Below, in pieces: positions 33,389 to 56,675 of a DNA stretch of 64,000 bases. How positions within the stretch are numbered: position 1 is the stretch's first letter; each line of letters opens with the position of its first letter. Source of the DNA: Dokdonella sp. (GTDB taxonomy: Bacteria > Pseudomonadota > Gammaproteobacteria > Xanthomonadales > Rhodanobacteraceae); NCBI RefSeq assembly GCF_019634845.1, contig NZ_JAHCAQ010000005.1, forward strand, positions 124,001 to 188,000, written 5' to 3'. A program made the position numbers and the translations under genes. The notes under the pieces are model-generated. The model did no database searches, was not told the origin of the DNA, and saw nothing but the letters and a program-made list of their open reading frames with translations.

Positions 33389-34426
33389 TCAGGTTCCGTC
33401 GAAGTCGTCGGCAAAGACCACGTCATCAAGCACCGGCGCAGCCGGCAGACGCACGATGTCGTAATCCATCGCAGTGGTGGCACGGCCCCAGTACAGCTCG
33501 ACCTCGCGCGGCGAGGTGCCGACCAGCGGATGCGGCTCCACGTCATCCTCGTTCGGGGTGTTGGTCAGCGCGATCGGTGCAGCCCAATTCACCGCGTCGG
33601 GCGAGCGGCGCACGGCGAGATCGAAGCCGTTGCCGTTCTGGCGGATCCAGAACAGCGCGAACGCGCCGTCCGCGAGCACGACGGGCAGCGAGTCGTGGTT
33701 GTTGCCGCTGGCGGCAAACTCCTGCGCTGGCGCGCTCCAGTCGTAGGGATCGTGAGTGGTCTTGACGTAGATCTTGAGCGCACTGCTGCCGACCTGATAG
33801 CTGGCCAGATACAGTCCGTCGCGCTCGCGCCTGGCGACACGCGGCAACTGGCTGCCGGTGGCAATCGGCGTGCGCAGCAGGTCCCAGCTGGCGCCGCCGT
33901 CAGTGGACTGCGCGAGGTAACTGCCGCCGCCGATGCGCTGGTAGCTCAGCGTGAGCGTGCCATCGGCATGCATGATCGCGTGGGGATTGATCTCGCCGCC
34001 TGTGCTCCAGCCCAGATCGAGCGCGCCCTGTTCGCTGAACGCGATGCCGTCACTGCTGGTGGCGCGCCAGATGCGGAAACTCGAATTGGTGCTGCCGCCC
34101 TTGAGATAGAGCAGCAAGTACCGGGCGGGGCCCAGTTGCAGCAATGCCGGATGGCGTTCGTTGGCGCTGCTGGCGATGATCGCCGCTGGTGTGCTCCAGC
34201 TCGTGCCGCCATCGGTCGAGCGCGTCAGCCACAGGTCGCCGTACAGGGTTGCGTTGTCGAGGCGCTCGAACACCACGATGCGCGCACCGTCATCACTGGA
34301 GCGGATGACCGCGGGCTGGTAGTCGATCTGCGGGCCGCTGGTCACGGCCGAGGTGGCGAGGCACCACGCCGGCAGCGCGCAGCCCAGCGCGAGGATGGCG
34401 GAAGCGATGATGCGCTGACGGGTCAT
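33389..34426 (-). CDS. Secreted BNR/Asp-box (sialidase-fold) protein with C-terminal FADDFD tag
   Basis: The 345-residue product starts MTRQRIIASAILALGCALPA, a signal peptide ending near residue 24. Asp boxes STDGGTSW (~69) and STDGGASW (~180) and the propeller pattern point to a six-bladed sialidase-like fold, but I do not see the arginine triad of true sialidases. It ends VLDDVVFADDFDGT, the same C-terminal pattern as three other secreted proteins in this window. It likely binds or cleaves a carbohydrate outside the cell; function is unassigned. It is upstream-adjacent in position to the PdsS kinase gene and co-oriented. Confidence 0.85.
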   Translation of the reverse strand: MTRQRIIASAILALGCALPAWCLATSAVTSGPQIDYQPAVIRSSDDGARIVVFERLDNATLYGDLWLTRSTDGGTSWSTPAAIIASSANERHPALLQLGPARYLLLYLKGGSTNSSFRIWRATSSDGIAFSEQGALDLGWSTGGEINPHAIMHADGTLTLSYQRIGGGSYLAQSTDGGASWDLLRTPIATGSQLPRVARRERDGLYLASYQVGSSALKIYVKTTHDPYDWSAPAQEFAASGNNHDSLPVVLADGAFALFWIRQNGNGFDLAVRRSPDAVNWAAPIALTNTPNEDDVEPHPLVGTSPREVELYWGRATTAMDYDIVRLPAAPVLDDVVFADDFDGT

Positions 34427-34582
34427 GCCGGTTGCCTGCCCTGGGCCTGGTTGTGGACGGTGATGATGAGGCCTACGCGAAACGGCGGCAAAATCCCGCA
34501 ACGATCGGTGCAGGCCTGGACATGGGTGCGGCGTTGCGGAACCGTGCGCGAGCCGGGCGGCAGCGCTCCGCTGCGGCAGCCG

Positions 34583-36610
34583 TCAGCGCGTCGCGCCGGG
34601 TGCCAGCGGCCGCCGCGGCATGCCGACTAGGTTCAGCACGAATTCCACGCCATCGCCCTCGGCGCGGTTGCTGGCGCTGGCATGGCCGCGATGCAACTCG
34701 GCGACGAGGCGCACCACGTACAGGCCCAGGCCCAGGTGCGGCGTGGCGCCACCCGGCGTGGCGCGGTCACGTAGCGACACCAGCGAATCGAATACGCGCT
34801 CGTGCATCGCTGCCGGCAGTGGCGGGCCGGCATTGGCCACGCGGATGCAGGCCGCGCCGTCGCTGCCCGCCTCCAGCGTGAGCGCGATCCAACCGCCGGG
34901 CGGCGTGAACGAGCAGGCATTGTCGAACAGCTTGTCGAGCGCCTGCGCGATCAGCTCGGGAGCGCCATGGAACGGCAGCGCCGCGGCGGGCAACTGCAGG
35001 CGCAGTTCGCGCGGTGCCGCCAGCGGCCGGTAACCGTCGCCGCAGCCTGCCACCAGCGCGCGCAGGTCGAAGTCCTCGGCCTCGGCCGCGGCGATCGCGC
35101 GCTCGACACGGCTGGCCTCGCTCATTGCGCGCACGATCGCGCCGAGCCGATCGGCGCCGTCACGCGCGCGGACGAGGTAAGGCCGCGCCGGCGCCGGCAC
35201 GCCCTGATGTTCGAGGTTGTCGAGCGAGGACTTGACGATCGCCAGCGGCGTGTTGAGCTCGTGCGAGAGCTTGGAGGCAAGCGTGCGCAGGTAGTCGGTG
35301 GAGGCGCCGATCTCGTCGAGCAGCTTGCGGAAGCTGCGTGCGAGATCGCCGAGCTCGTCGCGCGAGTCGATCAGCGGCATCGGCGCGTCGAGTCGACCGC
35401 CCGCGCGCAGCGCCTGCTCGGCGGCGTTGCGCAGGCGCCGCAAGCGCCACGACAGCAAGGCGCCGAACAGCAGCAGGATTGCGGCGGCCACCGCGAATGC
35501 GACCAGCGTTGCGCTGACCAGGCCTGCCAGCGCGCGGTTGGCGAGCAGCGGCAGCGTCGGGTTGGCCTGCTCCAACAGCAGCGCAGCGTGCGCGCGCGGC
35601 CCCGCATCGAGCGGCACCGCAGCCACCAGCACCACCGCGCCGGCGTATTCGGCCGGACGCCAGCCTGTCGCGGCGATGCCCGACAGCGCCTGCCAGACTT
35701 CGCCCGCGTCAAGTCGCGGCCGCCGCCCAGCCAGTGGCTGCGCCGCATCGGCCGATGCGGCGAAGAAGTGCCGATACAGCCATGCGGCAAAGCCGCCGGC
35801 GCGCTGCGCGGATGGAAACTCATCCGCGCGCAGCTCGCCCGCGTCGGCGAGCACCCAGCCGTCGACCAGCACCACGCGGGCGCGCGTGTGCGCCGGCAGC
35901 AACGACTGCAGGTTGTGCGCGAGTGCGGCGTCATCGCCGACGAGCTGGCGCAGTTCGGGCGTATCCGACCCCGGCTGCGCCGAGTCGTGGACCGCGATAC
36001 CCAGTCGCGTCGGCGCGAACGGGCGCGCGATGCGCAGCTCGATGCGATAACCCGAACCATCGTCCTGCAATGCCCCTTGCAGTTGCTCGGGCAACTCGGG
36101 CGCAGCGCCCTGCGCCACTGCCACGAAGCTGCCCGGTGCGGCGCCGATGAGCCGATAGCGCGCGGTGCGGCCATCCTTGCCGAGCACGAGCGTGACGTGG
36201 TCGCCGCTGGCGCTGCGCGGATCGGCCGGATCGAAGCGTGCGCGCGTGGCGTCGCGGACCTGCGCCAGCAGATACAGATCGCCGTCGCGGCGTGCCAGCG
36301 TCACGCGCAGCTTGTTTGCGTCGGTGGCCGGACCCATCGCCTGCGCGTAGGGCCGCAACGCGCTCCAGTCGTCATCGTAGCCATCGATCAGCAGCGGCTC
36401 GCGCGCAGTCTGCACATAGGCCACCTCGCCGGCCGGCAACTGCAGGCCGCGTGCCTGCATCGCCTTGGCCAGCAGGTGCGCCGTGGTCAGCCAGGCCTGC
36501 TGCTGGCCCTCGCGCAGGAGCTGCTCGGTGAGGCGCACGAACTGCCAGCCCGCCCACGGCAGGGCCAGCGTGCACAGCGCGGCGAGCAGCAGTTTCAGGC
36601 GCAGCGACAT
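34583..36610 (-). CDS. pdsS: Sensor histidine kinase, PdsS type (proteobacterial dedicated sortase system)
   Basis: The 675-residue kinase starts MSLRLKLLLAALCTLALPWA, with the first membrane helix at ~5-25, a large periplasmic region to ~295, a second helix (ALAGLVSATLVAFAVAAAIL), HAMP-like linker, and a HisKA domain with the phosphorylated His in LASKLSHELNTPLAIVKSSL. The ATPase domain has FDNACSFTPPGGW (N box) and HLGLGLYVVRLVAELHRG (G2 box). The N-terminus and partner match the dedicated-sortase histidine kinase family (TIGR03785) as I remember it. The pairing with pdsR, 148 bases upstream, is clear; a sortase is not in this window. Confidence 0.82.
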   Translation of the reverse strand: MSLRLKLLLAALCTLALPWAGWQFVRLTEQLLREGQQQAWLTTAHLLAKAMQARGLQLPAGEVAYVQTAREPLLIDGYDDDWSALRPYAQAMGPATDANKLRVTLARRDGDLYLLAQVRDATRARFDPADPRSASGDHVTLVLGKDGRTARYRLIGAAPGSFVAVAQGAAPELPEQLQGALQDDGSGYRIELRIARPFAPTRLGIAVHDSAQPGSDTPELRQLVGDDAALAHNLQSLLPAHTRARVVLVDGWVLADAGELRADEFPSAQRAGGFAAWLYRHFFAASADAAQPLAGRRPRLDAGEVWQALSGIAATGWRPAEYAGAVVLVAAVPLDAGPRAHAALLLEQANPTLPLLANRALAGLVSATLVAFAVAAAILLLFGALLSWRLRRLRNAAEQALRAGGRLDAPMPLIDSRDELGDLARSFRKLLDEIGASTDYLRTLASKLSHELNTPLAIVKSSLDNLEHQGVPAPARPYLVRARDGADRLGAIVRAMSEASRVERAIAAAEAEDFDLRALVAGCGDGYRPLAAPRELRLQLPAAALPFHGAPELIAQALDKLFDNACSFTPPGGWIALTLEAGSDGAACIRVANAGPPLPAAMHERVFDSLVSLRDRATPGGATPHLGLGLYVVRLVAELHRGHASASNRAEGDGVEFVLNLVGMPRRPLAPGATR

Positions 36611-36758
36611 GGCGCCGGCACTCGGCAGTGACCCGCCGTCGATCGGCCGGCGGCGCGGCTGGAGGCGCGACGGCCATGCGCTCGCGCAACGGCCGCCGCG
36701 GTGCGCGAGCGCCGGTCGGCGCGAGCGCATCGCCGGTGTGCGATGGCGCCTGGCGATC

Positions 36759-37451
36759 TCAAGGGTTGCGCCACCGATACCCGGCGCCGTGTACGGTGTC
36801 GATCGCATCGAAGGCGCGGTCGATGGCGATGAACTTCTTGCGAATGCGCTTGATGTGCGAGGTGATGGTGGCGTCGTCGACGACGACCTGTGCATCGCGC
36901 ATGAGCTGGTCGCGGCTCTTCACGTGGCCGGGGAAGCGCACCAGCGTGTGCACCATCCAGAACTCGGTGACCGTGAGCGGCACGTCGACGCCATTCCAGC
37001 TCACGCGCATGCGTTCGGTCTCGAGCTTGAGCGGGCCCTGCTCGATCACGCTGTCGGCGCTCACCGGCTGACGCAACGCGTCGACCCGGCGCAGCAACGC
37101 GTGGATGCGCGCGGCGAGCTGGTGCAGCGACACGTCCTTGGCGAGATAGTCGTCGGCGCCCAGGCGCAAGCCCGAAATGACGTCGAAATCCGAGTCGCGT
37201 GCGGTGAGGAACAGGATCGGCAGCGTGGCCGCCTGGGCGCGCAGCGTGCGGCACAGCTCGAAGCCGCCCTCGAGCTCGTCACCGAGCCCGACGTCGATGA
37301 TGACGAGATCGGGCAGGCGCTGGGCAAACGCGGTCTGCGCCTCGGGCCGCGAGGCATAGCCGCGCACTTCAAAGCCCAGCCGCGTCAGCGCCTCGACGTA
37401 GTTGGCACGGATCAGCGGTTCATCCTCGACGATGGCGATGTGGCGTGGCAT
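36759..37451 (-). CDS. pdsR: Response regulator, PdsR type (proteobacterial dedicated sortase system)
   Basis: The 230-residue OmpR/PhoB-type regulator starts MPRHIAIVEDEPLIRANYVE. The receiver domain has the acidic pair EDE, phosphorylated Asp in VIIDVGLGDE (~52), LFLTARDSDFDVISGL and Lys in YLAKDVS. The winged-helix output domain ends VDDATITSHIKRIRKKFIAI ... HGAGYRWRNP. The receiver and the segment TVTEFWMVHTLVRFPGHVKS agree with the dedicated-sortase regulator family (TIGR03787) from memory. It precedes pdsS; two tiny ORFs diverge from it. Confidence 0.87.
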   Translation of the reverse strand: MPRHIAIVEDEPLIRANYVEALTRLGFEVRGYASRPEAQTAFAQRLPDLVIIDVGLGDELEGGFELCRTLRAQAATLPILFLTARDSDFDVISGLRLGADDYLAKDVSLHQLAARIHALLRRVDALRQPVSADSVIEQGPLKLETERMRVSWNGVDVPLTVTEFWMVHTLVRFPGHVKSRDQLMRDAQVVVDDATITSHIKRIRKKFIAIDRAFDAIDTVHGAGYRWRNP

Positions 37452-37623
37452 GACGGGTTCCGTGGTGGTTGCGGCCAGCTTACCGGCGGCGCGCGGCGGC
37501 GCAATGGCGCCACCTGCAACGCCCGCAAAATGCCACAACTCGTCGGCGCCAGCGCCGCCGCGCGCCGCCGGCAGGGCCGGCCGCGGCGGTGTAGTTGCAC
37601 CGTGCCGAACAGCGGAGCGCCAC

Positions 37624-37737
37624 ATGCACGCCAACCCACCCGATCCAAACGCCGAACTTCATGGCCGCGAGAGCCTGCGCGTGGTCGTCGCGATCGGCGC
37701 CCTGCTGCTCGGTTTCCTCGCTGCATTGCAGCCTTGA
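37624..37737 (+). CDS. Small single-span membrane protein (37 residues)
   Basis: The ORF encodes a polar N-terminus (MHANPPDPNAELHGRESLR) and one hydrophobic segment (VVVAIGALLLGFLAAL). I do not recognise it. Support comes from context: it diverges from pdsR, is followed 13 bases later by a second small ORF, and a strong plus-strand terminator ends the unit. It could be a PdsR-controlled small membrane protein; that is inference. Confidence 0.42.
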   Translation: MHANPPDPNAELHGRESLRVVVAIGALLLGFLAALQP

Positions 37738-37750
37738 TGATGGAGTCGCC

Positions 37751-37930
37751 ATGAACTTGCTGCTGGATCCACTGCGCTCATTCACGACCACCGCGTCCGA
37801 CGACGATGCCACGGCGTTGTGGCTCGGTGCCGAAGCGATGATCGCGCCATCGTGGTGGCGCGAGCTGAGCAGCGACGCCGCGCCGCCAGCGGCCGAGCGC
37901 GCCGTCGATGCCGACTGGCAGGTGATCTGA
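37751..37930 (+). CDS. Small hypothetical protein (59 residues)
   Basis: The ORF starts MNLLLDPLRSFTTTASDDDA and ends DADWQVI, with an amphipathic N-terminus and two adjacent tryptophans (PSWWREL). No family was recognised and no membrane segment is present. The intrinsic terminator starting 45 bases after its stop shows a plus-strand transcript ends here, which favours a real gene. The ORF could still be fortuitous. Confidence 0.42.
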   Translation: MNLLLDPLRSFTTTASDDDATALWLGAEAMIAPSWWRELSSDAAPPAAERAVDADWQVI

Positions 37931-37974
37931 TCCGCGGCGCGGACGCTGTTGCATCCGCGCCCTTCGCGCGAGGC

Positions 37975-38024
37975 CCGCGCCGGGCGCTCCCCTCCCTCCT
38001 CTCGCCCCGGCGCGGTTTTTTTTT
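37975..38024 (+). terminator. Strong intrinsic terminator after the small ORFs
   Basis: CCGCGCCGGGCG (37975-37986) pairs with CGCCCCGGCGCGG (38003-38015) with a single bulge, and nine T residues follow (38016-38024). It is oriented on the plus strand, while rpe runs on the minus strand beyond it. Confidence 0.85.
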
Positions 38025-38036
38025 GCGCGGCGCGGC

Positions 38037-38711
38037 TCAGCCGCCGCTGATCGCGGCCTGCATGCGCGCAATGATGGCGGCGTAGTCAGCGGCGCCGAAG
38101 ATCGCCGAGCCGGCGACGAAGGTGTCGGCGCCGGCCTGCGCGATCTGGGCGATGTTGTCGGCCTTGACGCCACCGTCGATCTCGAGCCGGATCGCGCGAC
38201 CACTGGCATCGATGCGACGACGCGCCTCGCGCAGCTTGTCGAGTGCACCGGGAATGAAGCCCTGACCACCGAAACCCGGATTGACCGACATGATGAGCAC
38301 GAGGTCGAGCTTGTCGAGCACGTGGTCGAGCCACGTCAACGGCGTGGCCGGATTGAACACCAGGCCCGCCTGGCAACCGTGATCCTTGATCAGGCCGATC
38401 GTGCGATCGACGTGCTCGCTGGCCTCGGGATGAAAGCTGATGAGGCTGGCACCGGCCTGGGCGAAGTCGGGCACGATGCGGTCGACGGGCTTGACCATCA
38501 GGTGCACGTCGATCGGCGCGCTCACGCCATGCTTGCGCAGCGCCGCGCACACCAGCGGCCCGATCGTGAGGTTGGGCACGTAGTGGTTGTCCATCACGTC
38601 GAAGTGGATCCACTGCGCGCCGGCGGCGATGACGGCATCGACCTCGGCGCCGAGGCGGGCGAAATCGGCGGACAGGATCGAGGGAGCGATGATCGGGCTT
38701 TGCTTGGCCAT
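38037..38711 (-). CDS. rpe: Ribulose-phosphate 3-epimerase
   Basis: Rpe interconverts ribulose 5-phosphate and xylulose 5-phosphate. The 224-residue TIM barrel starts [20 protein letters not shown] (38711). Family blocks are [20 protein letters not shown] (metal-binding His and catalytic Asp), [24 protein letters not shown] and [11 protein letters not shown] with the second catalytic Asp. It lies 46 bases downstream of djlA on the same strand. Confidence 0.97.
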
Positions 38712-38757
38712 GGCGAGATACCTGCGGGAGGCGCGGGCGGGATTGGGGTGGTGGCAG

Positions 38758-39576
38758 TCAGCGCTGGCCGCGCTGTTCGCGGACGCGCTCATAGGCGGCG
38801 TTGATTTCGCGCGCGCGTTCCTCGGAGCGGCGGCGCACCTCATCGGGCGCGTCCACCAGTTTGTCTGGATGGTGCTGGCTCATCAGCTTGCGATAGGCCC
38901 GCTTGACCGCCGCGTCGTCGGCGTCGTTGGCCACGCCGAGCACGGCGTAGGGATCGACTTCGGAGGGTCGCCGAGGCGGGGGCGGCGGCGCTTCCTGCCA
39001 CGGGCCACGCTCGCGCGGCCGCGCGGTGCGCTCGTACTGCGCGCGATGCCAGGCCGGCCCGTAACCCTTCATCGCCGACAGCGCGGTGAGCTCGTATTCG
39101 GTGACGCCCAGTGCCGCGCACAGCTTCTGCACGAGCGCGAGCTTGGGCTGCACCACGAGGCCCTCGGCGTAGACGAGATCGAGCAGGAGGTCGAGCACGA
39201 TGAAGGCATTGTCGCGCCGGCCACGGCACCAGTTCCTGAGTTCGGCCAGCGGCACCGTATTGTTGAATTCGGGCTGCTTGCCGACCGTGAAGCGCGCCAT
39301 CGCCACGCGGCGCGCCTCGGCATCGAGGTTGAGGCGCCCCATCAGCGCTTCGGCGGCGACGATCTCGGGCTCGGAGACGCGCCCGTCGGATTTGGCCAGG
39401 GCACCGGCGTAGGCGAACAGCGGGCCGACGAAGTCGAGGTCGAAGCGGGGCGGCCGCAGGCGCTCGCTGGCCTGGTCGTAGATGTGGCCGAGCACGCCAC
39501 CGAGCACGAGTCCGACCGGGTTGCGCCACAGCAGCACGCCGATGATGGCGCCGACGATCTTGCCGACGATCCTCAC
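38758..39576 (-). CDS. djlA: DjlA-type co-chaperone (TerB plus J domain)
   Basis: The 272-residue protein probably starts at the GTG at 39576 ([20 protein letters not shown]), which gives the N-terminal membrane segment typical of DjlA. A TerB-like helical domain (~45-160, [20 protein letters not shown]) and a Pro-rich linker ([11 protein letters not shown]) lead to the C-terminal J domain (~205-272) with the essential HPD in [10 protein letters not shown]. DjlA stimulates DnaK at the inner membrane and affects capsule signalling in E. coli. Confidence 0.92.
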
Positions 39577-39705
39577 CGCGCGGCCTCGCGGCGCGCGGTG
39601 CGGCAGGCAGGGACGTGGTGGCAGGCGGCGCTGGACACGGGAGCGAGACGTCGCGGCGGTGAAGCCGCACATTCTAGCAAGGCCTTCCGCCGCGCCGGGC
39701 ATCGC

Positions 39706-39711
39706 TACAAT
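39706..39711 (+). promoter_or_regulatory. Candidate -10 box for purC
   Basis: TACAAT lies 28 bases before the chosen purC GTG, in the same relative position as the TACAAT before hemB. No clear -35 hexamer is present. The in-frame ATG overlapping it at 39710 would then lie before the transcription start, which argues for the GTG. Confidence 0.45.
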
Positions 39712-39739
39712 GGCGGCCTTTCGCCAGCGGGAACAGCGC

Positions 39740-40636
39740 GTGCCGACCGTACTCGTGGAATCCAATCTGCCCGGCCTCGAACTCGTCCACCGCGGCAAGG
39801 TGCGCGATGTCTACGCACTGTCGGCGCAGGAGCTGCTGATCGTCGCCAGCGACCGGCTCAGTGCGTTCGACGTGGTGCTGCCCGACCCGATCCCCGGCAA
39901 GGGCGAGATGCTGTGCCAGATCTCCAATTTCTGGTTCGCGCGCACCAGCCAGCTCATTGCCAACCATCTGACCGGACGCAGCGTGGCCAGCGCGCTGCCG
40001 GCCGGCGTGGATGCCGCCCTGTACGAACGACGCAGCGTGATCACCAAGCGCCTGCGCGTGTTGCCGGTGGAGGCGATCGCACGCGGCTACCTCATCGGCT
40101 CGGGCTGGAAGGACTACCAGGCCACCGGTGCGGTGTGCGGCATCCGCCTGCCGGCTGGATTGCGCCAGGCCGAGCGCCTGCCGCAGCCGATCTTCACGCC
40201 CTCGACCAAGGCCGCGGTCGGCGCGCACGACCAGAACGTGGGCTTCGATGAGGTGGTTGCGCTGATCGGCGGCGAGCTTGCCGAACAGGTGCGCGCGGCG
40301 ACGCTGGCGATCTACGACTTCGCGGCAGCCCATGCCGCCGGCCGCGGCATCCTCATCGCCGATACCAAGTTCGAGTTCGGCCTCGACGCCGAAGGCCGGC
40401 TGCACGTCGTCGACGAGATGCTCACGCCCGATTCGTCGCGCTTCTGGCCGGCCGACGAGTATCGCGTGGGCAGCAGCCCACCGAGCTACGACAAGCAGTT
40501 CGTGCGCGACTACCTGGAAACGCTGGACTGGAACAAGAGCGCGCCGGGGCCGCATGTTCCGCCCGCGATCATCGCCGCGACCGCGGCGAAATACGCCGAG
40601 GCACTGCGTCGCCTGGCCGACATCCAGCTCGACTGA
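39740..40636 (+). CDS. purC: Phosphoribosylaminoimidazole-succinocarboxamide synthase
   Basis: PurC joins aspartate to CAIR in purine synthesis. The protein from the GTG at 39740 has 298 residues ([20 protein letters not shown]), the longer SAICAR-synthase type found in Lysobacterales and eukaryotes, not the ~237-residue E. coli type. Blocks seen are [45 protein letters not shown] and [13 protein letters not shown]. An in-frame ATG at 39710 would add ten residues but overlaps the -10 box. A bidirectional terminator follows. Confidence 0.95.
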
Positions 40637-40672
40637 GCCGCGCGCCTCGCACCGCAGCGCGGCCTGCCGGGC

Positions 40673-40706
40673 AAAAAAAAGCGCGCCACCGGGGCGCGCT
40701 TTTTCG
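40673..40706. terminator. Bidirectional intrinsic terminator between purC and the lipase-like gene
   Basis: GCGCGCC (40681-40687) and GGCGCGC (40693-40699) form a 7-bp stem with a five-base loop. Eight A residues precede it and five T residues follow, so it can end convergent transcripts from both sides. Confidence 0.9.
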
Positions 40707-40725
40707 TTTGCCTGGAGCACGTGGC

Positions 40726-45905: not shown

Positions 45906-47162
45906 TCAACAACTGAATCGATAGGCGCAGTGCAGATGCGGCTTGGTTCGTGGCGGCCGCGGGTAGGCGCGACCGAGGTGGATGCGGCATCGGTTGCGCG
46001 CGATCGCGTCAAGCGCGGCGCCGAGGGTGCGCAGGCGATGGCGCAGACCGAGCAGGCAGCCGGCGAGGATCGGCTTGAGCGCGCCCAGGGCATAGGTTCG
46101 ATTGGGGCGGCTGGTGGCAACGACCTCGGGCTCGATGGCCGCCGCATCGTGCGCGGTGGCGAGCAAGGTGTGCAGGTTGTCGGCGACGATCTTGGCGGCG
46201 AAGTCCTGCTGCAAGGCGAGGTGAGTGAGGCCGCTGACGGCCTCCAGTCGCAGTCGGTGTTTGATGCGTTTGAAGGCTTCCTCGATGCGCCAGCAGCGAT
46301 GGTAGAGTGCGCCGAACGCGTGCGCGGGGTAGCGCTGCACATCGAGCAGCGAGGTCATCAGGATGCGGATGGAGCCGCTGGGCGTCACATCGCGAATCAG
46401 GCGCACGGTGGTGGGCAGCTCCTCCAGCTCATGGGACAGGCGATCGGCCGGGCGCGGCGGCTCCAGCCGCACCAAGCGCCTCGCTCTTGCCGCTGCGCAG
46501 GAAGGCGCGCACGCAGGCGTAACCGCTCGCGTCCACGCGCATGCAGAAGTGGCGCCCACGCTGGCGCAGGGAGGCAACCACGGTATTGCCGATCAGACCG
46601 CGATCGAGCACGAGCAGATCGTCCGCCTCCGTCGCATCCAGCGCCTCGAAGAGCATCTGCCGCTCGCAGCCGTCGGCGCCATGCAGGGCGGCGTGCAAGG
46701 TCAGCTCCGCGCCGGGCAGATACAAACCGAAGGCGTAGCGATCGGCCTCCAGCGCGGCGCCCTTGCGGGTCGACACGCGCAGACGCGATTCGTCGGCGGC
46801 GACCACCCGCAAGCCGTGCCAGCGATGGGCGTCGATACACGGCTGCGCCAGGCGCAGCAGGTGCGCACTGAGCGTGTCGAACACCGTGGCGGAGAAGCCG
46901 CGACGCACCTTGGCAAACGCCTGGCGCGTCGCCCCGTGCACGCGCACTGGCGCGCCGCCGATTTGCGCGAACAACGAATCCAGCTGCGTCTGCACGCGCG
47001 CACATGCCGCTGAGCATGAGCGCCAGTACGCGCGGCAGCGTCAGCTTGCGCCGGCGCGTGAAGGCGGCGGGAGCGAGTCGGTGGGAAGCCAGCAGGTCGC
47101 CGTCGTGGAGGGCGGCGGAGAACTCAGAAAGAATCGCGGCAGGAGCGAGTGTTCGAGTTCAT
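45906..47162 (-). pseudogene. IS4-family DDE transposase, frameshifted
   Basis: The transposase is read in at least three pieces: a first frame up to MLSGMCAR (near 47000), a second from VQTQLDSLFAQIGG to CVRAFLRSGKSEA (near 46480), and a third from LVRLEPPRPADRLSHEL to the stop at 45906. The first break looks like a one-base loss at ~46995-47000 and the second a one-base gain at ~46474. DDE residues are visible in VVAADESRLRV, LLVLDRGLIGN and RIEEAFKRIKHRL; the IS4 YREK signature has Cys where Arg is expected (YHRCWRIEE). The N-terminal start near 47162 is also out of frame. Confidence 0.85.
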
Positions 47163-47265: not shown

Positions 47266-47266
47266 C

Positions 47267-47278
47267 TAGCCCCCCCAT
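47267..47278. repeat. Probable target-site duplication, right copy
   Basis: TAGCCCCCCCAT lies one base outside the right inverted repeat and matches the left flank at 45859-45870 in 11 of 12 positions. The remaining ~120 bases to the lpdA stop hold no gene I can see. Confidence 0.6.
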
Positions 47279-47401
47279 GCCACGTCAATAATCAACACGG
47301 TCACCTCCCCATCGACATCGTAATGGCGTGGTACCTGCGAAAACTGTGTGAAGAGCTATCGGGCAGTCCACGCATCAACCAACGACGACGACCAGGCGGA
47401 A

Positions 47402-49159
<1,758 letters not shown>

Positions 49160-49478
49160 GCTGGGTTCCTGCTGCGGGCGAGCCGACCGGGCTGGCAACG
49201 GTTCGCGGACGGGACGGGTGATGGACGGCGGCACGCGTGCCGCGATCGCGTCATTCTGCGCAATCGCAGGCGGCGGCGCAAAGCGAGCCGCGCGCGACGC
49301 GGCTCCGGGTGCTGGCCACGGCTGCTCGCGGTTGCCAACCCCGTCACGTTCGCGGCGCGTACCACGCACGCCCAAGCCCGTTCGCACGTCACGCCATGGT
49401 GGCGAGGCCAGGGTGCACACTCGCCGTACCGGATGGCGCCCGACGCCGTCCCTTGCATGCGCCACGGGGAGCACGACG
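49160..49478. other. Divergent promoter region between lpdA and the Asp-box protein gene
   Basis: No gene was recognised in these 319 bases. They must contain both promoters, but I cannot point to clear -35/-10 pairs. A GGGGAG ribosome-binding site (49467-49472) precedes the plus-strand gene. Confidence 0.5.
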
Positions 49479-52337
49479 ATGAAACCACGCACCTTCATTC
49501 TGGCGGCAGCCGCCGCCGTCTGCAGCGGCCCGCTGCTGGCCGGCAGCGGCACCTGGACCTCGGAAGGGCCGTATGGCGGCATCGTCTATCGCCTGTACGT
49601 GAGCCCGGCCGCCCCGGGCACGCTCTACGCGGGAACCCGCGGCGGCATCTTCCGCAGCAACGATGGCGGCGTGAGCTGGGTGCGCAAGGAGGCCGGCCTG
49701 AGCGGCAGTCTCGGCGTCGCCGGCATCTCGCTCGCGATCGACGCCGAGGCAGCCAACACGCTGTGGCTGGTCGACGGTGTCGGTCGCGTCAATCGCAGCA
49801 GCGACGGCGGCGACAACTGGGCGTTGACCGGCTACAGCCGGCCCGCATACGACGTCAACCAGATCGTCGATGCGCCGGGCGGCACGGGCAGGCTCTACCT
49901 CGTCACCGAGACCAGTGGTGTGCTCGTGAGCAACGACAGCGGGGCCAGCTTCACCGCCAGCGGTAGCGGCCTGCCGGCCGGCGTGCCGCTCGCGCACCTC
50001 GCGATCGATGCGGCCAATCCGCTGCGCATGCTCGCCGGCACACGCGGATACGATGCCACCGACCCGCTGCACACCGAGTCGATCTATCTCAGTACCGATG
50101 GCGGCGCGAGCTGGACCGGCACGCTCGGCAGTGCGTCGTACTACATGGGTGTCACCGACATCAGTTTCGGCGCCGGCGGCAAGGTCTATGCGGCGGTCGA
50201 TGATGCGCTGTACCGCAGCGACGATGGTGGCGCGAGCTGGACCGGGCCGCTGCTCGGGCCGCCCTACAACAACAGCATCATGGCGGTGCGCGCCGATCCG
50301 GCCACGCCCAACACGGTCTTCATCGGTGGCTACAAGGGCCTGGCCAGGTCCACCGACGGCGGCGTCAGCAGCACGCCGCTCACGACCGGCCTCATCGTGA
50401 CGGCCGGCATGCCGGCGTCGGTGAACCGCATCGTCATGCATCCAAACTATCCCGCCGCCGCACAACTGTGGCTGGGCACCGAGGAAGCGGGCATCTACTT
50501 CAGTGCCAGCGCCGGCGCCAGCTGGACTGCGCGCAGCGATGGCTTGGCGGCCACCAACATCCGTGCGTTGGCGATGTTCCACGATGCGGCCACCCACCGC
50601 ATGTTCGCCGGGTATGGCGACGCGTTCCGACCTTCGCCAGCGCTGTTCCGCGGCAACAACGCCGGCCCCGGCACGCCATTCTCGTCATGGGCGCCTTCCA
50701 ACACCAATCTCGGTGCCTACCAGATCCGTTCGATCACGATCGACCCGACCACCCGCAGCGGCGGCATCGGCAGCACGCGCCTGTATGCGACCGGGCGCGC
50801 CGGGCCCTATCCGGACCTCGATGCAAGGGACGGCGGCATCTACCGCAGCCTCGATGGCGGCGGCACCTGGACCACGATCGATGTGGGCTTGCCCGTGAGC
50901 GGCAACCCGCCGGCGGCCAATGTCGGCACCGTGCGCAATCTCGTGCTCGATCCGCGTTCGTGCGCGGCGCCGCCCCCTTCTGGCCCGTGCGCAAGCGGGC
51001 CGCTGCAGACGCTGTATGCGACCTCCAACGGCAAGCACGATGGCGCAACCGGCACCGACAGCTTCCGCGTCCTAAAGAGCGGCAACGGCGGCGACTCGTG
51101 GCTCAGCAGCGACACCGGCATCCCGCAGCCGATCGACGCCGCGACCCCGCAGCGGCAGTCCGTGCTCGTGGTGCCGATCGTGATCAACCCGCTCAATCCG
51201 CAGGAACTGTACGTCGGCACCAGCGCCAACTACGACGCGACCGCCTTGGCCGCACCCACGATCCAAAGTGGTGTATTCAGGAGCACTGACGGCGGCGCCA
51301 ACTGGGTGTTCCGCAGCAACGGTCTGCCGCGTCGCGCCGGCTCGAGCCATACCGCGCTCGACGTGCTGAGCCTGGCGATCAACCCGGCCAACCCGCTCGA
51401 ACTGTGGTGCTCGGTGGTCGACCTCAGCGTGGGCGGCGCGGCGAGCGGCGGCATCTACCACACGGTCGATGGCGGCGCGAACTGGAGCAGCGCAAGCAAC
51501 GGCATCAGCGCCACCGACATTCGCGCACTTCTCGTCGACCCGTCACAACCGAACGTGCTCTATGCCTCGGGCGCCGGCAGCGACGCCAATCCGGGCAGCG
51601 TGTACAAGAGCAGCAACGGCGGCGCCACCTGGCATTCGATCAGCATCGGTTTGCCGGCCGACGCCGCGACCGCGCTGCAGGTCGACCCGGTCGATCCGAG
51701 CGTGCTCTACGCCGGCTCCACCAGTGGCGTGTGGAGCATCACCCAGTTGCCCGACAGCGATGCCGATGGCGTCCCCGACGCGGTTGAACAGGCGGCGCCC
51801 AACGGCGGTGACGGCAACGCCGACGGCATCGCCGATGCGCTGCAGCCGGGCGTGGGCTCGCTGACCAGCGCCAGCGCCGACGGCAACGCCCAACCGGCGA
51901 CGCTGCAGCCGTATTTCACCGTTTCGATCACCCCACTGGCGGGCCAATGCAGCCAGGCGATGGACGTGCAATCGGTGTATGCGGCCTATCACGGGCGTGA
52001 CGTGTCGAGCTATGGCGACGACTACGTCTACCCGCGCCAGCTCGCGCGCTTCGAGATCCAGGACTGCCAAAGCGCGAAGGTGAAACTCAAGTTCCATGGC
52101 GCGAGCTTCGGCAGCGGCTTTGGCATGCGCTACTTCGGCCCGGCGATCCCGGGCGATCCGGCCACGCTGGGCTGGCATGACTTCAGTGTCCGCGCCAATC
52201 GGATCGCCGCCGACACCTGGGAGCTCACGCTCGACAATGGCCAGTTCGGCAGCTATCGCCCGGCCAGCGCCAACGCGATCCTGTTCGAAGGTGGCCCGGC
52301 GCGCAGCGAAGGCATCTTCCGCGACGGCTTCGACTGA
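49479..52337 (+). CDS. Large secreted Asp-box (sortilin/VPS10-like) beta-propeller protein with C-terminal FRDGFD tag
   Basis: The 952-residue product has a signal peptide (MKPRTFILAAAAAVCSGPLL, cleavage near LLA). About eleven Asp boxes of type S-x-D-x-G-x2-W follow (SNDGGVSW, STDGGASW, SDDGGASW, SLDGGGTW, STDGGANW, TVDGGANW and variants), building one or two propellers to ~residue 755. A calcium-binding thrombospondin type 3-like stretch (DSDADGVPDAVEQ, then GDGNADGIADAL) leads to a C-terminal domain with a Cys pair (AGQCSQ, IQDCQS) and the final EGIFRDGFD. Such proteins are surface or extracellular glycan-binding modules; no catalytic residues are assigned. Confidence 0.9.
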   Translation: MKPRTFILAAAAAVCSGPLLAGSGTWTSEGPYGGIVYRLYVSPAAPGTLYAGTRGGIFRSNDGGVSWVRKEAGLSGSLGVAGISLAIDAEAANTLWLVDGVGRVNRSSDGGDNWALTGYSRPAYDVNQIVDAPGGTGRLYLVTETSGVLVSNDSGASFTASGSGLPAGVPLAHLAIDAANPLRMLAGTRGYDATDPLHTESIYLSTDGGASWTGTLGSASYYMGVTDISFGAGGKVYAAVDDALYRSDDGGASWTGPLLGPPYNNSIMAVRADPATPNTVFIGGYKGLARSTDGGVSSTPLTTGLIVTAGMPASVNRIVMHPNYPAAAQLWLGTEEAGIYFSASAGASWTARSDGLAATNIRALAMFHDAATHRMFAGYGDAFRPSPALFRGNNAGPGTPFSSWAPSNTNLGAYQIRSITIDPTTRSGGIGSTRLYATGRAGPYPDLDARDGGIYRSLDGGGTWTTIDVGLPVSGNPPAANVGTVRNLVLDPRSCAAPPPSGPCASGPLQTLYATSNGKHDGATGTDSFRVLKSGNGGDSWLSSDTGIPQPIDAATPQRQSVLVVPIVINPLNPQELYVGTSANYDATALAAPTIQSGVFRSTDGGANWVFRSNGLPRRAGSSHTALDVLSLAINPANPLELWCSVVDLSVGGAASGGIYHTVDGGANWSSASNGISATDIRALLVDPSQPNVLYASGAGSDANPGSVYKSSNGGATWHSISIGLPADAATALQVDPVDPSVLYAGSTSGVWSITQLPDSDADGVPDAVEQAAPNGGDGNADGIADALQPGVGSLTSASADGNAQPATLQPYFTVSITPLAGQCSQAMDVQSVYAAYHGRDVSSYGDDYVYPRQLARFEIQDCQSAKVKLKFHGASFGSGFGMRYFGPAIPGDPATLGWHDFSVRANRIAADTWELTLDNGQFGSYRPASANAILFEGGPARSEGIFRDGFD

Positions 52338-52374
52338 GCCCGCAGCGCGGCGGGCCGTCAGCGGGTCGCCGCGC

Positions 52375-53871
52375 TCAGGGTGACGGCGCCGCGCCCGCGC
52401 CGCTGGCGGGCGGCGGCGGCAAGGTTTGCGCGATGCGCTCGCGCAGATAGGCATGGAACGGATTGCAGCCGAGGCGGCTGAACTGGTCGGCCGCCACCAC
52501 CAGCGCGCCGCGTTCGCCGCGCAGGCGCAGCGTGCCGAGCCGGATGCCGAAATCCTCGTCCATGCGCGGCTCCATGCCATACAGTGGATCGTCGCAGGCG
52601 AACGGCAGCGCCACATGCGACAACGAGTACACCTCGGGCGGAAACGCGAGCTGCAGCGGACGTACGACGGCGTCGCGCGCACCGGCGTCGTAGCGGCGCT
52701 CGACCAGCGCCAGGGTCGCCGGATCGGCATTGCCGAGCACATCGACGCGATAGGTCTGCGGGCGGTCATCGTGCAACACGTCGAGCGCGTTGGCGGCGTC
52801 GACCTTGAACATGTCGGCGAGCAGGCTCGCGCGATTGATGTCGAACAGGACCAGCGCGCTGCCGTTGGCCGGCAGCATCTCGAACAGCGAGTGCACCACG
52901 GCATGGCTGCTGACCGTGCCGTCGAGCACCGACTGGAACCCGAGGATCGGCGGCAGGCGCTGGTTGCGGCCGCTGCTGGCCAGCGCGAGCAGACGTGCCT
53001 GCAGGCGCGTGGTCAACAGGTACGACTGCACCGCGCCATTGACCGGAAACGAGTTGTACTTGAACGGGTTGAACTCGGGCAGGATGTCGAGCCAGCGCGA
53101 TTTCTCGAAGTATTCGATGCCGCCGAACAGCGGCAACCAGCGCGACAGGCCGGCGTACGGACGCAGGCCGATCATCGGCGAGACCAGCACGAGCTGCTGC
53201 GGTCGTGGCAGTGCGTCGCCATCCGCATCGAGGGCATCGAGCGTGTAGTCGAGGGCGAGCGCGCCGCCATTGGAATAACCCAGGATGTGCAGCGGCCGGT
53301 CCGGTCCCACGCGGGCGCGCAGCTCGCGCATGGCCAGCGCCACCACGGCACGCCAGTCCTGCCAGCGCACGTCGAGCAAGCCGGACGGGATCGTGCCGTG
53401 ACCGGGCAGGCGCGGCGCGATCACGGCGAAGCCGGCCTGCTCGTACAGCGTGGCCAGCCCGCGCACGCTGTAGGGCGCATCGGTGAGTCCGTGCAACAGC
53501 AGCACGCCGCCGCGCGGCGCGGGCGGCGTGGATTCGAACGAGCGGTTCCAGTCGCGCGCCGCGGCCGCTGGGCCGATGTGGCTGTCGACCTCGTAGCGCA
53601 ACCGACCCGATACCGGCGCCGCGGCGAGCGCACTGCGCAGCTCATCGAACAGACGTTGTTCGCGCGCGAGGTAGTCCGCCCAGCGGGCCTGCGCCGGCAA
53701 TGAATCGGCATGCACCTCGGCCGCCAGCACGAGTCGGTGCCAAGGCATGAGCTCGGGCTTGCCGCGTGCCTCGAAGGCGCGCCCGAGCAGGATGCCAAGC
53801 GCCACCACGACGAGTGCCAACAGCAGCCACGCGAGGCGCCGCAGCCAGCGCGGCAGGGAGAGTCGGATCAT
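52375..53871 (-). CDS. Membrane-anchored alpha/beta hydrolase
   Basis: The 498-residue protein starts MIRLSLPRWLRRLAWLLLAL with a membrane anchor (~13-30), leaving the hydrolase outside. The fold signature is GGVLLLHGLTDAPYSVRGLA (oxyanion His-Gly), PRLPGHGTIPSG, and the nucleophile elbow LHILGYSNGGALALDY (Ser ~198). A candidate acid/His pair lies in DPATLAL and LSHVALPFACDDPLYG. It resembles monoacylglycerol lipase or carboxylesterase-like proteins. It is convergent with the Asp-box gene and divergent from the beta-helix gene. Substrate unknown. Confidence 0.87.
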   Translation of the reverse strand: MIRLSLPRWLRRLAWLLLALVVVALGILLGRAFEARGKPELMPWHRLVLAAEVHADSLPAQARWADYLAREQRLFDELRSALAAAPVSGRLRYEVDSHIGPAAAARDWNRSFESTPPAPRGGVLLLHGLTDAPYSVRGLATLYEQAGFAVIAPRLPGHGTIPSGLLDVRWQDWRAVVALAMRELRARVGPDRPLHILGYSNGGALALDYTLDALDADGDALPRPQQLVLVSPMIGLRPYAGLSRWLPLFGGIEYFEKSRWLDILPEFNPFKYNSFPVNGAVQSYLLTTRLQARLLALASSGRNQRLPPILGFQSVLDGTVSSHAVVHSLFEMLPANGSALVLFDINRASLLADMFKVDAANALDVLHDDRPQTYRVDVLGNADPATLALVERRYDAGARDAVVRPLQLAFPPEVYSLSHVALPFACDDPLYGMEPRMDEDFGIRLGTLRLRGERGALVVAADQFSRLGCNPFHAYLRERIAQTLPPPPASGAGAAPSP

Positions 53872-53981
53872 GGTGCCATCCTAACCGGGATGCGTGGCCC
53901 GGCGTCGCGCGAACTGCGACCCACCCGCGCGACGAGCACGCACGGCGATGGCATGATCGGCCAACCTGCCGGAGAGCCGCC

Positions 53982-55166
53982 ATGCCCGCGCGCTGCCACT
54001 GCTGTCTGCCCCTGCTGCTGGCTGGCCTTGCCGCCACAACACACGCGGCCACGCGGCAGGTCGGCCCCGGCCAGCCCTACGCGACGCCCTGCGCCGCGGT
54101 TGCCGCGGCCGGCGATGGCGACACGATCCTGGTCGATGCGGCCGGCAACTATGCCGGCGATGTCTGCACCTGGAGCCGCAATGGCCTCACCCTGCGCGGC
54201 ATCAACGGCCGCCCGCACATCGCTGCCAACGGCCAGCACGCGCAGGGCAAGGCGATCTGGGTCATCGTCGGCAACGACACCACGATCGAGAACGTGGAGA
54301 TGTCGGGTTGCCATGTGCCCGACGAGAATGGCGCTGCAATCCGCCAGGAAGGTCGCAACCTGACGCTGCGCCAGGTGTATTTCCACCACAACGAAAACGG
54401 CATCCTGACCAGCGCCGACAGCGCCAGCACGATCACGATCGAGTACAGCGAGTTCGCCCACAACGGTTTTGGCGACGGCTATACGCACAACCTCTACATC
54501 GGCCGAGTCGGCCGGCTCGTGTTCCGCCACAACTGGTCGCACCATGCCGAGGTCGGCCACCTGCTCAAGTCGCGCGCGATCCGCAACGACATCCTCTACA
54601 ACCGCCTCACTGGCGAGACCGGCAGCAGCGACAGCTATGAGCTCACGCTGCCCAACGGCGGGCTCGCGTTCGTGATCGGCAACCTGATCGAGCAGCCGGC
54701 GACGAGCCAGAACGGCGCGATGCTCGACTACCTGAGCGAAGGTGCGGGCGGCAATACCGACCATCGCCTGTTCGTGGTGAACAACACCTTCGTCAACGAC
54801 CGCGGCGCCGGCACCTTCCTGCAGCTGGCCAACGGGGCCAGCCAGCCGGCGCTGGCGCGCAACAACATCTTCCATGGCAACGGCACGATCAGTTCGCGCG
54901 GCGACACCGTGCTCGACCACAACTACGCGGGTAACGCGGCGTTGTTCCTCGATGCGGCCAACTACGACTACCGCCTGCTGCCGAGCGCGAGCGCGGTGAT
55001 CGACGCCGGCATCGATCCGGGCAGTGGCGCCGGCGAGCCACTGTCGCCGACGCGCATCTACGTGCATCCGGGCGCCGGCGCGCCACGCGCCGTGAACGGC
55101 GTCATCGACATCGGCGCCTACGAATTCGCCGCTGATGCGATCTTTGCCGACGGCTTCGACGGCTGA
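53982..55166 (+). CDS. Secreted right-handed beta-helix protein with C-terminal FADGFD tag
   Basis: The 394-residue product has a GGAGAG ribosome-binding site and a signal peptide (MPARCHCCLPLLLAGLAATT, cleavage after THA). The mature protein shows parallel beta-helix rungs of pectate-lyase type (NGLTLRGINGRPHIAANG, DTTIENVEMSGCHV, NLTLRQVYFHHNENGIL) and a terminal GVIDIGAYEFAA. It ends DAIFADGFDG. Beta-helix proteins often bind or cleave polysaccharides; catalytic residues are not identifiable here. The neighbouring gene at 55257-56675 has the same architecture, convergently placed. Confidence 0.88.
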   Translation: MPARCHCCLPLLLAGLAATTHAATRQVGPGQPYATPCAAVAAAGDGDTILVDAAGNYAGDVCTWSRNGLTLRGINGRPHIAANGQHAQGKAIWVIVGNDTTIENVEMSGCHVPDENGAAIRQEGRNLTLRQVYFHHNENGILTSADSASTITIEYSEFAHNGFGDGYTHNLYIGRVGRLVFRHNWSHHAEVGHLLKSRAIRNDILYNRLTGETGSSDSYELTLPNGGLAFVIGNLIEQPATSQNGAMLDYLSEGAGGNTDHRLFVVNNTFVNDRGAGTFLQLANGASQPALARNNIFHGNGTISSRGDTVLDHNYAGNAALFLDAANYDYRLLPSASAVIDAGIDPGSGAGEPLSPTRIYVHPGAGAPRAVNGVIDIGAYEFAADAIFADGFDG

Positions 55167-55256
55167 ACGCCGGCGCCAAGAACGGCCTGCGGCCATCGCG
55201 GCAGCATGCCGGCGCCCGCGCCGGGCCGGCCTGCCGCGGTGCCTGATCCGCCAGGC

Positions 55257-56675
55257 TCAGCCCGGACCGGCGGCGTCGAAGCCGTTGGCGAAGATGAGGT
55301 CGCCACGATACTCGTAGGCGCCGATGTCGAAGCCGGCGCCCTGCGGGCGCGGCGTGCCCTCGACATCGAGCGCGGGCGCCAGCGTGGCGCTGCCGGCGTC
55401 GATCGCCGCCGCCGCGGCGCGCAGATGCAGGTCGAACGGCGGGGCGATGAACAGACTCGTCGCGGTGGCGGCGTTGAACTGGATGTTGTGATCGATGACG
55501 AGCCCGTCGCCATCGAGTGAAAAGTCGGCAGCGAGGTTGTTGCGCACCACGACGTTGCTGCTGCGGCGGCCGTCCTTGTGGTCATGCACCATGATCCACG
55601 GCGGCCCCGGGGTGCCGGCCGCGAGGTCGATGACGGTGTTGTTGACGATGCGCGAGTCGCGCATGCCGTAGAAGCTGATTCCGTGCCAATGGTCGGTGAC
55701 GACCACGTTGTTCTCGACGATCCAACCGCGGAAGAAGCCGTCGTAGCAACCGATGCCCTGCATTTCGCTGCGCAGCGGATTGGACGGATCGGTCGCGTTG
55801 ATGAACACGTTGCCGCGCAACACCACCCCGACGACTTCGCCGGTGCCGACGCCACCGGCGCCATACGACCAGCTCTGGAAACCGTCGTCGTGGTTGGCGT
55901 CGAACTCGTCGCCGATGAGATTGTTCTGCACGCGGTTGTACTCGAACACGCCGCGATCGCCGAGCCCACGCAGGCCGTCGGCGGAGAAGCCATCGACGAG
56001 ATTGCGCCGCACCACGCCGTCCTCGCCGCCGACCGAGATGCCGAAACGCACGTTGCGCACGCGGCTGTCGGACAGGCTCACGCGATCACCCTCGATCGCG
56101 ACGCCGCTCGAGGCGAGGTTGACCCATTCGTTTGGACCCCACGCCGAGGCATCGGCGACCGAGAACACGTCGAGATTCGACATGGTCACGTCCCAGCTCG
56201 GGCCGAACCACGAATGGTTGGCCACCTCGACGATCGTCATCGGCTCATAGTTGCCGCCAAACGAAGGGCTCACGGCGAGACCGCGGATGATCCAGTTCTG
56301 CGCCGAGCGCACCAGCAGGCTGCGCAGCTGCGGGATATGGCCAGGCTCGGCAGCGAGCGTGATCGGCGCGCTGTTGTAGGCGTGCTGGATCGACACGTCG
56401 CCGTGGTAGCCATTGCGCAGGTAGATCGTGTCGCCCGCCCGTACCGGTGCGCCGGCATGCACCGTCACCAGTGTCATGCCCGGCTGATAGGGATAGTCGG
56501 GCCAGTCGCGCGTCTCGATGAGTCCCGCGTCGAACACGTGCGCGAGCGAGCGCCACGGATGCGCGGCACTGCCATCGCCGCTGCTGTCGCTGCCAGTGAC
56601 CGGATCGACGTGGAAGGCCGCGCCGTGCGCAGCCGAACCCACCAGCAGCAAGACCCACCACCAAGCCCAACGCAT
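55257..56675 (-). CDS. Secreted right-handed beta-helix protein with C-terminal FANGFD tag
   Basis: The 472-residue form starts MRWAWWWVLLLVGSAAHGAA, a signal peptide ending near AHGA. The mature N-terminus has FHVDPVTGSDSSGDGSAAHP, the dockerin-free DUF1565-like opening of beta-helix enzymes, then many right-handed rungs (NWIIRGLAVSPSFGGNYEP, GWIVENNVVVTDHWHGISFY, DSRIVNNTVIDLAAG). It ends with FDIGAYEYRGDLIFANGFDA and seven more residues. The tag is therefore internal by a few residues. Similar architecture to the 54-kb protein suggests related roles. Confidence 0.87.
   Translation of the reverse strand: MRWAWWWVLLLVGSAAHGAAFHVDPVTGSDSSGDGSAAHPWRSLAHVFDAGLIETRDWPDYPYQPGMTLVTVHAGAPVRAGDTIYLRNGYHGDVSIQHAYNSAPITLAAEPGHIPQLRSLLVRSAQNWIIRGLAVSPSFGGNYEPMTIVEVANHSWFGPSWDVTMSNLDVFSVADASAWGPNEWVNLASSGVAIEGDRVSLSDSRVRNVRFGISVGGEDGVVRRNLVDGFSADGLRGLGDRGVFEYNRVQNNLIGDEFDANHDDGFQSWSYGAGGVGTGEVVGVVLRGNVFINATDPSNPLRSEMQGIGCYDGFFRGWIVENNVVVTDHWHGISFYGMRDSRIVNNTVIDLAAGTPGPPWIMVHDHKDGRRSSNVVVRNNLAADFSLDGDGLVIDHNIQFNAATATSLFIAPPFDLHLRAAAAAIDAGSATLAPALDVEGTPRPQGAGFDIGAYEYRGDLIFANGFDAAGPG

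What the first reader, a model, noticed from the sequence alone, without database searches (positions are those of the whole stretch)
33389..56675. Shared C-terminal tag [IV]-F-x-[DN]-[GD]-F-D on four secreted proteins
Four unrelated exported proteins end in nearly the same short tag: VVFADDFDGT (33389-34426), GIFRDGFD (49479-52337), AIFADGFDG (53982-55166) and LIFANGFDAAGPG (55257-56675). Their folds differ (BNR, Asp-box propeller, two beta-helices), so the tag is not explained by a shared domain. It lies at or within a few residues of the C-terminus, is acidic-aromatic and follows varied linkers, as expected for a sorting, anchoring or secretion signal. I do not recall a named sorting family with this exact motif. 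No membrane helix or basic tail follows it, unlike LPXTG, PEP-CTERM or GlyGly-CTERM.
Basis: partly seen in the sequence, partly recalled or inferred. Interest (0 to 1): 0.78.

Follow-up and report, generated by a model that had tools for sequence, protein, structure and literature searches.

The report
Address tag for bacterial protein export
Dozens of unrelated exported proteins in these bacteria end in the same seven-letter tag, which occurs mainly in species that carry a particular second protein-export machine, so the tag may be the address label that this machine (or a partner of it) reads.

Summary
The tag D-x-[IL]-F-x-[DN]-G-F-[DE] plus 0-6 residues ends the four window proteins and 59 of 78 motif-bearing ORFs of this genome (79 pattern hits, reversed control 1). 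In a 274-genome class sample no genome outside Lysobacterales exceeds 3 hits; inside the order it is patchy. It has dialects: IFxDRFE in part of family f10, a few FADSFE ends in f7, FxHGFE ends in G064. It also occurs behind signal peptides, in linkers and in tandem. No membrane helix follows, so it is not an LPXTG, PEP-CTERM or GlyGly-CTERM signal. In 200 Lysobacterales genomes it co-occurs with a second type II secretion system (T2SS-B, with a PDZ-bearing GspC): 92 of 105 genomes with at least 3 tags have it, against 9 of 95 others. Of those 9, three carry other dialects, four show none above control, two were not tested. Best reading: an address peptide by which T2SS-B or a partner recognises cargo; release versus surface anchoring is open. 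The link is correlative and rests mainly on families f1 and f2; in f8 it is weak. If right, the unsolved question of how T2SS picks cargo becomes directly testable.

The parts
33389..34426 (-). Exported BNR-repeat protein ending VVFADDFDGT
   Evidence: PF13088, 7.3e-14
33398..33418 (-). Tag VFADDFD of the BNR protein, 2 residues (GT) before the stop
   Evidence: G000:C23:157399-157417 -
49479..52337 (+). Exported Asp-box propeller protein ending GIFRDGFD
   Evidence: PF15902, 2.2e-19
52314..52334 (+). Tag IFRDGFD at the extreme C-terminus
53982..55166 (+). Exported beta-helix protein ending AIFADGFDG
   Evidence: PF13229, 3.7e-8; weak choice_anch_Q, below its cut-off
55140..55160 (+). Tag IFADGFD, one residue before the stop
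55257..56675 (-). Exported beta-helix protein ending LIFANGFDAAGPG
   Evidence: PF13229, 1.9e-6
55275..55295 (-). Tag IFANGFD, five residues before the stop
55308..55433 (-). Choice-of-anchor Q domain just before the tag
   Evidence: NF041518, 7.2e-12, over cut-off; residues 415-456

Best explanation
The tag is an uncleaved linear address peptide on Sec-exported, folded proteins. Proposed steps: (1) the protein crosses the inner membrane by its signal peptide and folds in the periplasm; (2) the exposed tag, usually the tail, is recognised by the second type II secretion system of these bacteria (T2SS-B: GspC with a PDZ domain, GspD, GspE, and GspF where tested); (3) the protein is carried to the outside, released or held on the surface.
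For: 200 Lysobacterales genomes: 105 have >=3 tags (G or R form), 92 of them with T2SS-B; of the 95 with fewer, 9 have it. Without 8 partial GspD matches that I counted as B the first figure is 84 of 105. Inside single families: f1 5 of 5 B+ tagged, 0 of 29 B-; f2 1 of 1 against 0 of 34; in f1 and f2 the tagged genera are exactly the B+ genera (4 of 15 and 1 of 12; product of the two chances 6e-5, two families picked after the fact). GspD tree of 40: each of the 13 tag-positive genomes sampled has one GspD in clade B, support 0.995; the extra GspDs of G074 and G095 that I fetched fall in clade A. Prediction test on 7 B+ genomes with <3 tags: three carry other dialects, namely G006 1 FADSFE among 2 hits, G017 3 FADSFE and 1 LFSDGFE among 7, G064 6 FxHGFE among 7. 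Choice-of-anchor Q proteins: 9 of 14 readable ends in B+ genomes carry the tag, 0 of 8 in B- genomes (my count). The 59 tagged proteins are hydrolases, propellers and beta-helices of exported kinds; choice_anch_Q in 10 of 59.
Against: Correlation only; GspD was a chosen candidate, not the winner of an unbiased scan, and no phylogenetic correction was made beyond family and genus. Four f8 genomes with GspD-B (G082, G127, G156, G176) show no tag above control; G089 and G197 (1 and 2 tags) were not tested for other dialects. In f8 there is little association: 2 of 6 B+ and 6 of 28 B- have >=3 hits. In G064 the dialect search gave 7 hits against 6 for the reversed control, so only the content (6 of 7 FxHGFE) is telling. 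Thirteen genomes with >=3 hits lack GspD-B, among them G123 (59), G182 (34), G188 (13), G168 (10), G048 (10); six are f8 genomes with 3-7 hits. GspE-B is missing from all 13 too, but gspD and gspE are neighbours, so one assembly gap cannot be told from true absence. Nine f2 genomes with an intermediate GspD were counted as B-; counting them as B+ would double the tag-poor B+ class to 18. No pseudopilin or gspL/M was recognised in the B loci. 19 of 78 motif ORFs are not C-terminal. An ECF sigma family also correlates (rho 0.58).
Confidence: 0.6

Rival explanations
1. The tag is a surface-retention signal: T2SS-B or the other T2SS carries the protein out by other features, and the tag binds a surface receptor inherited together with T2SS-B.
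For: Choice-of-anchor Q proteins end in membrane-anchor tails (IPTL-CTERM-like, by eye) in 4 of 14 readable B+ and 2 of 8 readable B- cases (my count). In a Wenzhouxiangella strain no proteolytic activity was found in the medium and the authors infer outer-membrane anchoring (PMC7691419, passages). Tandem tags fit binding.
Against: No receptor candidate found or searched for beyond the families named here; the co-distribution found is with secretion genes.
Confidence: 0.21
2. The tag is a ligand for the TPR part (periplasmic by topology, by eye) of membrane Ser/Thr kinases paired with ECF sigma factors, reporting on export of the regulon's proteins.
For: Kinase and/or sigma genes occur in 22 of the loci fetched around tagged genes, directly adjacent in L040, L082, L088, L128, L188 (4 sigma and 4 kinase genes checked by NCBIfam), and beside the own T2SS-B locus. 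TIGR02999 counts correlate with G-tag counts, rho 0.58 over 200 genomes. PknS-EcfK of Xanthomonas citri is a precedent for such a pair driving a secretion system (PMC13147305, abstract).
Against: Dissociable: G117 has 11 tags and 2 weak matches (best E 6.6e-5), G005 12 tags and 4 matches; 16 genomes with 0-1 G tags have >=11 matches, of which the 11 in f10 carry 7 or more R tags. Adjacency not tested against a matched background.
Confidence: 0.08
3. Shared ancestry only: tag and T2SS-B were both present early and both lost in the same lineages without working together.
For: Clade-wise pattern; the Fisher test ignores phylogeny; four f8 genomes keep T2SS-B without a tag found.
Against: Joint presence and absence by genus within f1 and f2; consistent dialects over unrelated proteins; other dialects found in 3 of 7 B+ genomes tested.
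Confidence: 0.08
4. The tag is a structural cap or remnant, for example the first strand of a jelly-roll domain (which starts with similar letters), with no sorting role.
For: Domains that look like jelly rolls start FFCDDFE, LFCDDFE or IFADGFETGDTSAW (L239, L251, L080; fold by eye).
Against: The tag follows unrelated folds, often as the last residues, and was not seen at the ends of choice-of-anchor Q proteins of T2SS-B-negative genomes (0 of 8 readable).
Confidence: 0.03

Closest known systems
GlyGly-CTERM / rhombosortase, PEP-CTERM / exosortase, LPXTG / sortase, MYXO-CTERM, IPTL-CTERM
   Same: Short C-terminal tag on many unrelated exported proteins of one genome, sporadic distribution, approached through co-distribution with a partner.
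   Different: No membrane helix, no basic tail; occurs also near the N-terminus and in linkers; goes with a T2SS subclass. For GlyGly-CTERM the authors found no evidence that rhombosortase marks a T2SS subclass (PMC3237569, passages).
Type II secretion substrates (Out, Eps, Xps systems)
   Same: Sec-exported hydrolases; LapA-, ExeM- and pectate-lyase-like members among the 59.
   Different: Described T2SS signals are composite or carried by a fold (Pel3, PMC7949064 abstract; VesB Ig fold needing the EpsC PDZ, PMC12369372 abstract); a conserved signal is stated to be unidentified (PMC11981180, passage).
Type IX secretion C-terminal domains
   Same: C-terminal targeting of large secreted proteins across the outer membrane.
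   Different: T9SS uses a folded domain of about 80 residues (recalled); here 7-9 residues.
Type I secretion C-terminal signals
   Same: Uncleaved signal at the extreme C-terminus (recalled).
   Different: Type I substrates lack Sec signal peptides (recalled); these have them.
Xanthomonas Xcs T2SS
   Same: One of the two GspDs of G023 is sister to clade B; naming it Xcs is recalled, not tested.
   Different: The nine f2 genomes with this intermediate GspD have no G tag and at most one R hit.

Membership tests
GlyGly-CTERM, PEP-CTERM, LPXTG, MYXO-CTERM | Motif followed by a transmembrane helix and a basic tail | tested here: not met
   59 terminal tags are followed by 0-6 residues; no such family among the 25 of 84 NCBIfam families shown at E up to 10
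T2SS substrate | Sec or Tat signal peptide | tested here: met
   Rough rule only: 43 of 56 loose, 29 of 56 strict, against 112 and 51 of 288 untagged
T2SS substrate | Export lost when gsp genes are removed | not testable with these tools
   needs an experiment
Type II secretion system (T2SS-B) | GspC, secretin GspD with N0, GspF | tested here: met
   PF11356 with a PDZ family over cut-off in 5 of 5 GspC tested; GspD and GspF tested for one locus, L361 (PF00263, PF03958, PF21305; PF00482)
Type II secretion system (T2SS-B) | Own pseudopilins GspG-K and GspL/M | tested here: inconclusive
   Not recognised by eye in the 15 B loci listed; the rest of the genomes not searched; the clade-A locus L360 has G, H, K, L-like and M
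Type IX secretion substrate | C-terminal sorting domain model | tested here: inconclusive
   No T9SS sorting-domain model among the 25 families shown; T9SS machinery not searched
Type I secretion substrate | No Sec signal peptide | tested here: not met
   all four window proteins start with one by eye

The most novel reading that the evidence does not exclude
The tag is a linear, transplantable address for a type II secretion system, read by GspC-B's PDZ domain or GspD-B's periplasmic domains, and the G, R, S and H dialects are natural, lineage-specific tag-reader codes.
Probability: 0.4. Interest if true: 0.93.

Novelty: new variant of a known kind. Interest (0 to 1): 0.84.

Why it matters
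How T2SS chooses its cargo is an open question: a 2025 paper states that no conserved signal has been identified (PMC11981180, passage). A seven-residue tag on about 60 proteins of one genome, with dialects and a matching secretion subclass, would turn that into simple delete, graft and swap experiments. It would also help to predict surface proteins across much of a bacterial order and could serve as an export tag for harmless engineered cargo.

Tried and rejected
DNA-level repeat or uptake sequence: rejected, codons vary while the peptide is kept. Chance: rejected (control; in the class sample of 274 genomes, 3 of them Lysobacterales, no genome outside the order has more than 3 hits, reversed control up to 2). 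ECF sigma / kinase as the partner: correlated but dissociable. Other T2SS (clade A): present with and without the tag, so rejected as the partner. Search for GspC-B/GspD-B residues that follow the R dialect: the R genomes sampled form one clade with the mixed genome G163 nested in it, so clade-specific residues prove nothing; the G051 GspC reading was out of frame. Further dialects in four f8 genomes: not found. Structure of a tagged protein: tool switched off. Literature: the letters of the tag gave four unrelated papers and 18 papers, of which the 10 shown look like matches inside ordinary words (none opened); the listings showed no paper on this tag. The library lacks most subscription journals.

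Full report
1. Observation. All four proteins and tags are present at the stated places. In the whole genome (3.26 Mb, 27 contigs, 90% complete) the tag pattern has 79 hits and 1 for the reversed control. I fetched the DNA around them. After merging ORFs with identical ends, 78 ORFs carry the motif; in 59 it lies 0-6 residues from the stop. Counts over these 59: Asp at -2 in 51; position 1 I 49, L 7, V 3; F 59; any; D 35, N 24; G 56, D 3; F 59; D 43, E 16. Codons vary. The 59 proteins match 46 Pfam families at E up to 1e-4, 25 shown (beta-helix 6, subtilase 5, then one or two each, such as GH44, M14, M28, endonuclease I, pectate lyase); choice_anch_Q in 10 of 59 at E up to 0.001. I found no NCBIfam model of the tag: at E up to 10 the most frequent family is choice_anch_Q with 14 of 59, and none of the 25 shown of 84 is a short tag model.

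2. Not strictly terminal. 19 of 78 ORFs have the motif further in; three of these are 16-20 aa from the end. Some sit right behind a signal peptide (L062, L075, L252, by eye) or between domains; tandem copies end single proteins in L081, L082 and L083. No helix or basic tail follows the terminal tags. So it behaves like a ligand peptide rather than a cleaved anchor.

3. Distribution. In 200 Lysobacterales genomes the form IFx[DN]GF[DE] reaches 80 per genome, and 97 genomes have none. In 274 genomes of the class (3 of them Lysobacterales) no genome outside the order exceeds 3, reversed control up to 2. Named carriers include Dokdonella, Tahibacter, Marinicella and Pseudofulvimonas.

4. Dialects. 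Choice-of-anchor Q proteins of family f10, genus g24 end in forms such as IFRDRFEEP and IFNDRFEQP. The R form reaches 45 in G037 (with 1 G), 25 in G139 (f10, g63), and at most 5 outside f10. f10 is probably Wenzhouxiangellaceae (recalled). G163 is mixed (31 G, 7 R). Ends in G114 include FEDSFE, FKDTFE and FQDHFE.

5. A matching secretion system. Of 47 genomes that I chose (22 tagged with G or R form, 25 not), all 22 tagged have two GspD over the cut-off; by my reading of the rows 6 of the 25 others have two or more, 17 have one, 2 have none. A tree of 40 GspD (26 from 13 tagged genomes, 14 from others) gives two deep clades; each of the 13 tagged genomes has one member in clade B (support 0.995), together with G006 and G064; one GspD of G023 is its sister. 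The B loci hold gspC, gspD, gspE and in several cases gspF, in most between genes that I recognised by eye as rho, trxA, rhlB and ftsE, ftsX, rpoH. GspC-B has T2SSC and PDZ domains in 5 of 5 tested. A clade-B GspD profile gives best E-values of 1e-200 or less in 93 of 200 genomes; 8 more have partial clade-B-like matches, most at contig ends, that I counted as B; nine f2 genomes are intermediate (1e-135 to 1e-170) and were counted as B-negative. (G156 at 3.9e-201 is the weakest of the 93.) Concordance with tag >=3: 92 both, 13 tag only, 9 B only, 86 neither; without the 8 partial matches 84, 21, 9, 86. No genome was dropped, incomplete ones included. The contrast comes from f1 (5 of 5 against 0 of 29) and f2 (1 of 1 against 0 of 34); in f8 it is weak (2 of 6 against 6 of 28); f4, f9, f10 and f12 have almost only B+ genomes.

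6. Prediction test. Nine genomes had B but under 3 tags; seven were searched for [..]FxxxF[DE]-stop. Hits and reversed control: G006 2 and 0 (1 FADSFE), G017 7 and 1 (3 FADSFE, 1 LFSDGFE), G064 7 and 6 (6 FxHGFE; DLIFKHGFE, DLIFLHGFE and DLIFAHGFE read in long ORFs). G064's sister genomes G143 (9 and 4) and G167 (13 and 6) show a mixture. Ten T2SS-B-negative genomes in the same search had 0-4 hits; of 8 read, 7 lie in ORFs under 60 aa. G082 4 and 1, G127 4 and 4, G156 1 and 2, G176 1 and 0: no dialect seen. Of the 13 tag-only genomes none has GspE-B either, but that is the neighbouring gene.

7. Mechanism. Shown: the tag, its dialects and its co-distribution. Inferred: T2SS-B reads the tag after Sec export and folding. 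The PDZ domain of GspC-B is a natural candidate reader because PDZ domains bind peptide tails (recalled) and EpsC's PDZ is needed for one substrate in Vibrio (PMC12369372, abstract). Whether cargo is released or stays on the surface is open; PMC7691419 (passages) favours the surface for a Wenzhouxiangella. Kinase and ECF sigma genes near tagged genes suggest regulation, with PknS-EcfK as a precedent (PMC13147305, abstract).

8. Novelty. I found no description of the tag in the searches named under Tried and rejected and no NCBIfam model. It works like a C-terminal sorting signal, so I file it as a new variant of that kind; the defining features of the named CTERM kinds were tested and not met. 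If the T2SS-B link is proved it would be a first linear T2SS address and could be called categorically new.

Noticed in passing
22 loci fetched around tagged genes, e.g. L040, L082, L088, L128, L188: Membrane Ser/Thr kinases with TPR-like C-terminal parts and TIGR02999 ECF sigma factors lie near or beside tagged genes; no matched background was computed.
   Followed up: partly
L081, L082, L083: Two tags in tandem, 10-12 residues apart, at the end of single proteins.
   Followed up: no
L239, L251, L080: Domains that look like jelly rolls (by eye) start with tag-like letters (FFCDDFE, LFCDDFE, IFADGFETGDTSAW); the tag may descend from such a strand.
   Followed up: no
L260, L262, L270, L276 (B+) and L273, L277 (B-): Proteins found with the choice-of-anchor Q model end in IPTL-CTERM-like membrane tails instead of the tag, in B+ as well as B- genomes.
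   Followed up: partly
G019 (family f9, genus g30): A complete-looking genome with no GspD or GspE match at all and no G tag, inside a family where 30 of 33 have T2SS-B.
   Followed up: no
f2 genomes G023, G040, G047, G081, G086, G131, G061, G175, G155: Carry an intermediate GspD (E 1e-135 to 1e-170) but no G tag and at most one R hit; possibly Xcs (recalled).
   Followed up: no
window 45906-46574: Transposase piece (DDE_Tnp_1) in the tagged-gene region.
   Followed up: no
L336 (G000:C6:18000-37900): Own T2SS-B locus has a kinase, a sigma gene and a tagged gene within about 8 kb upstream.
   Followed up: partly
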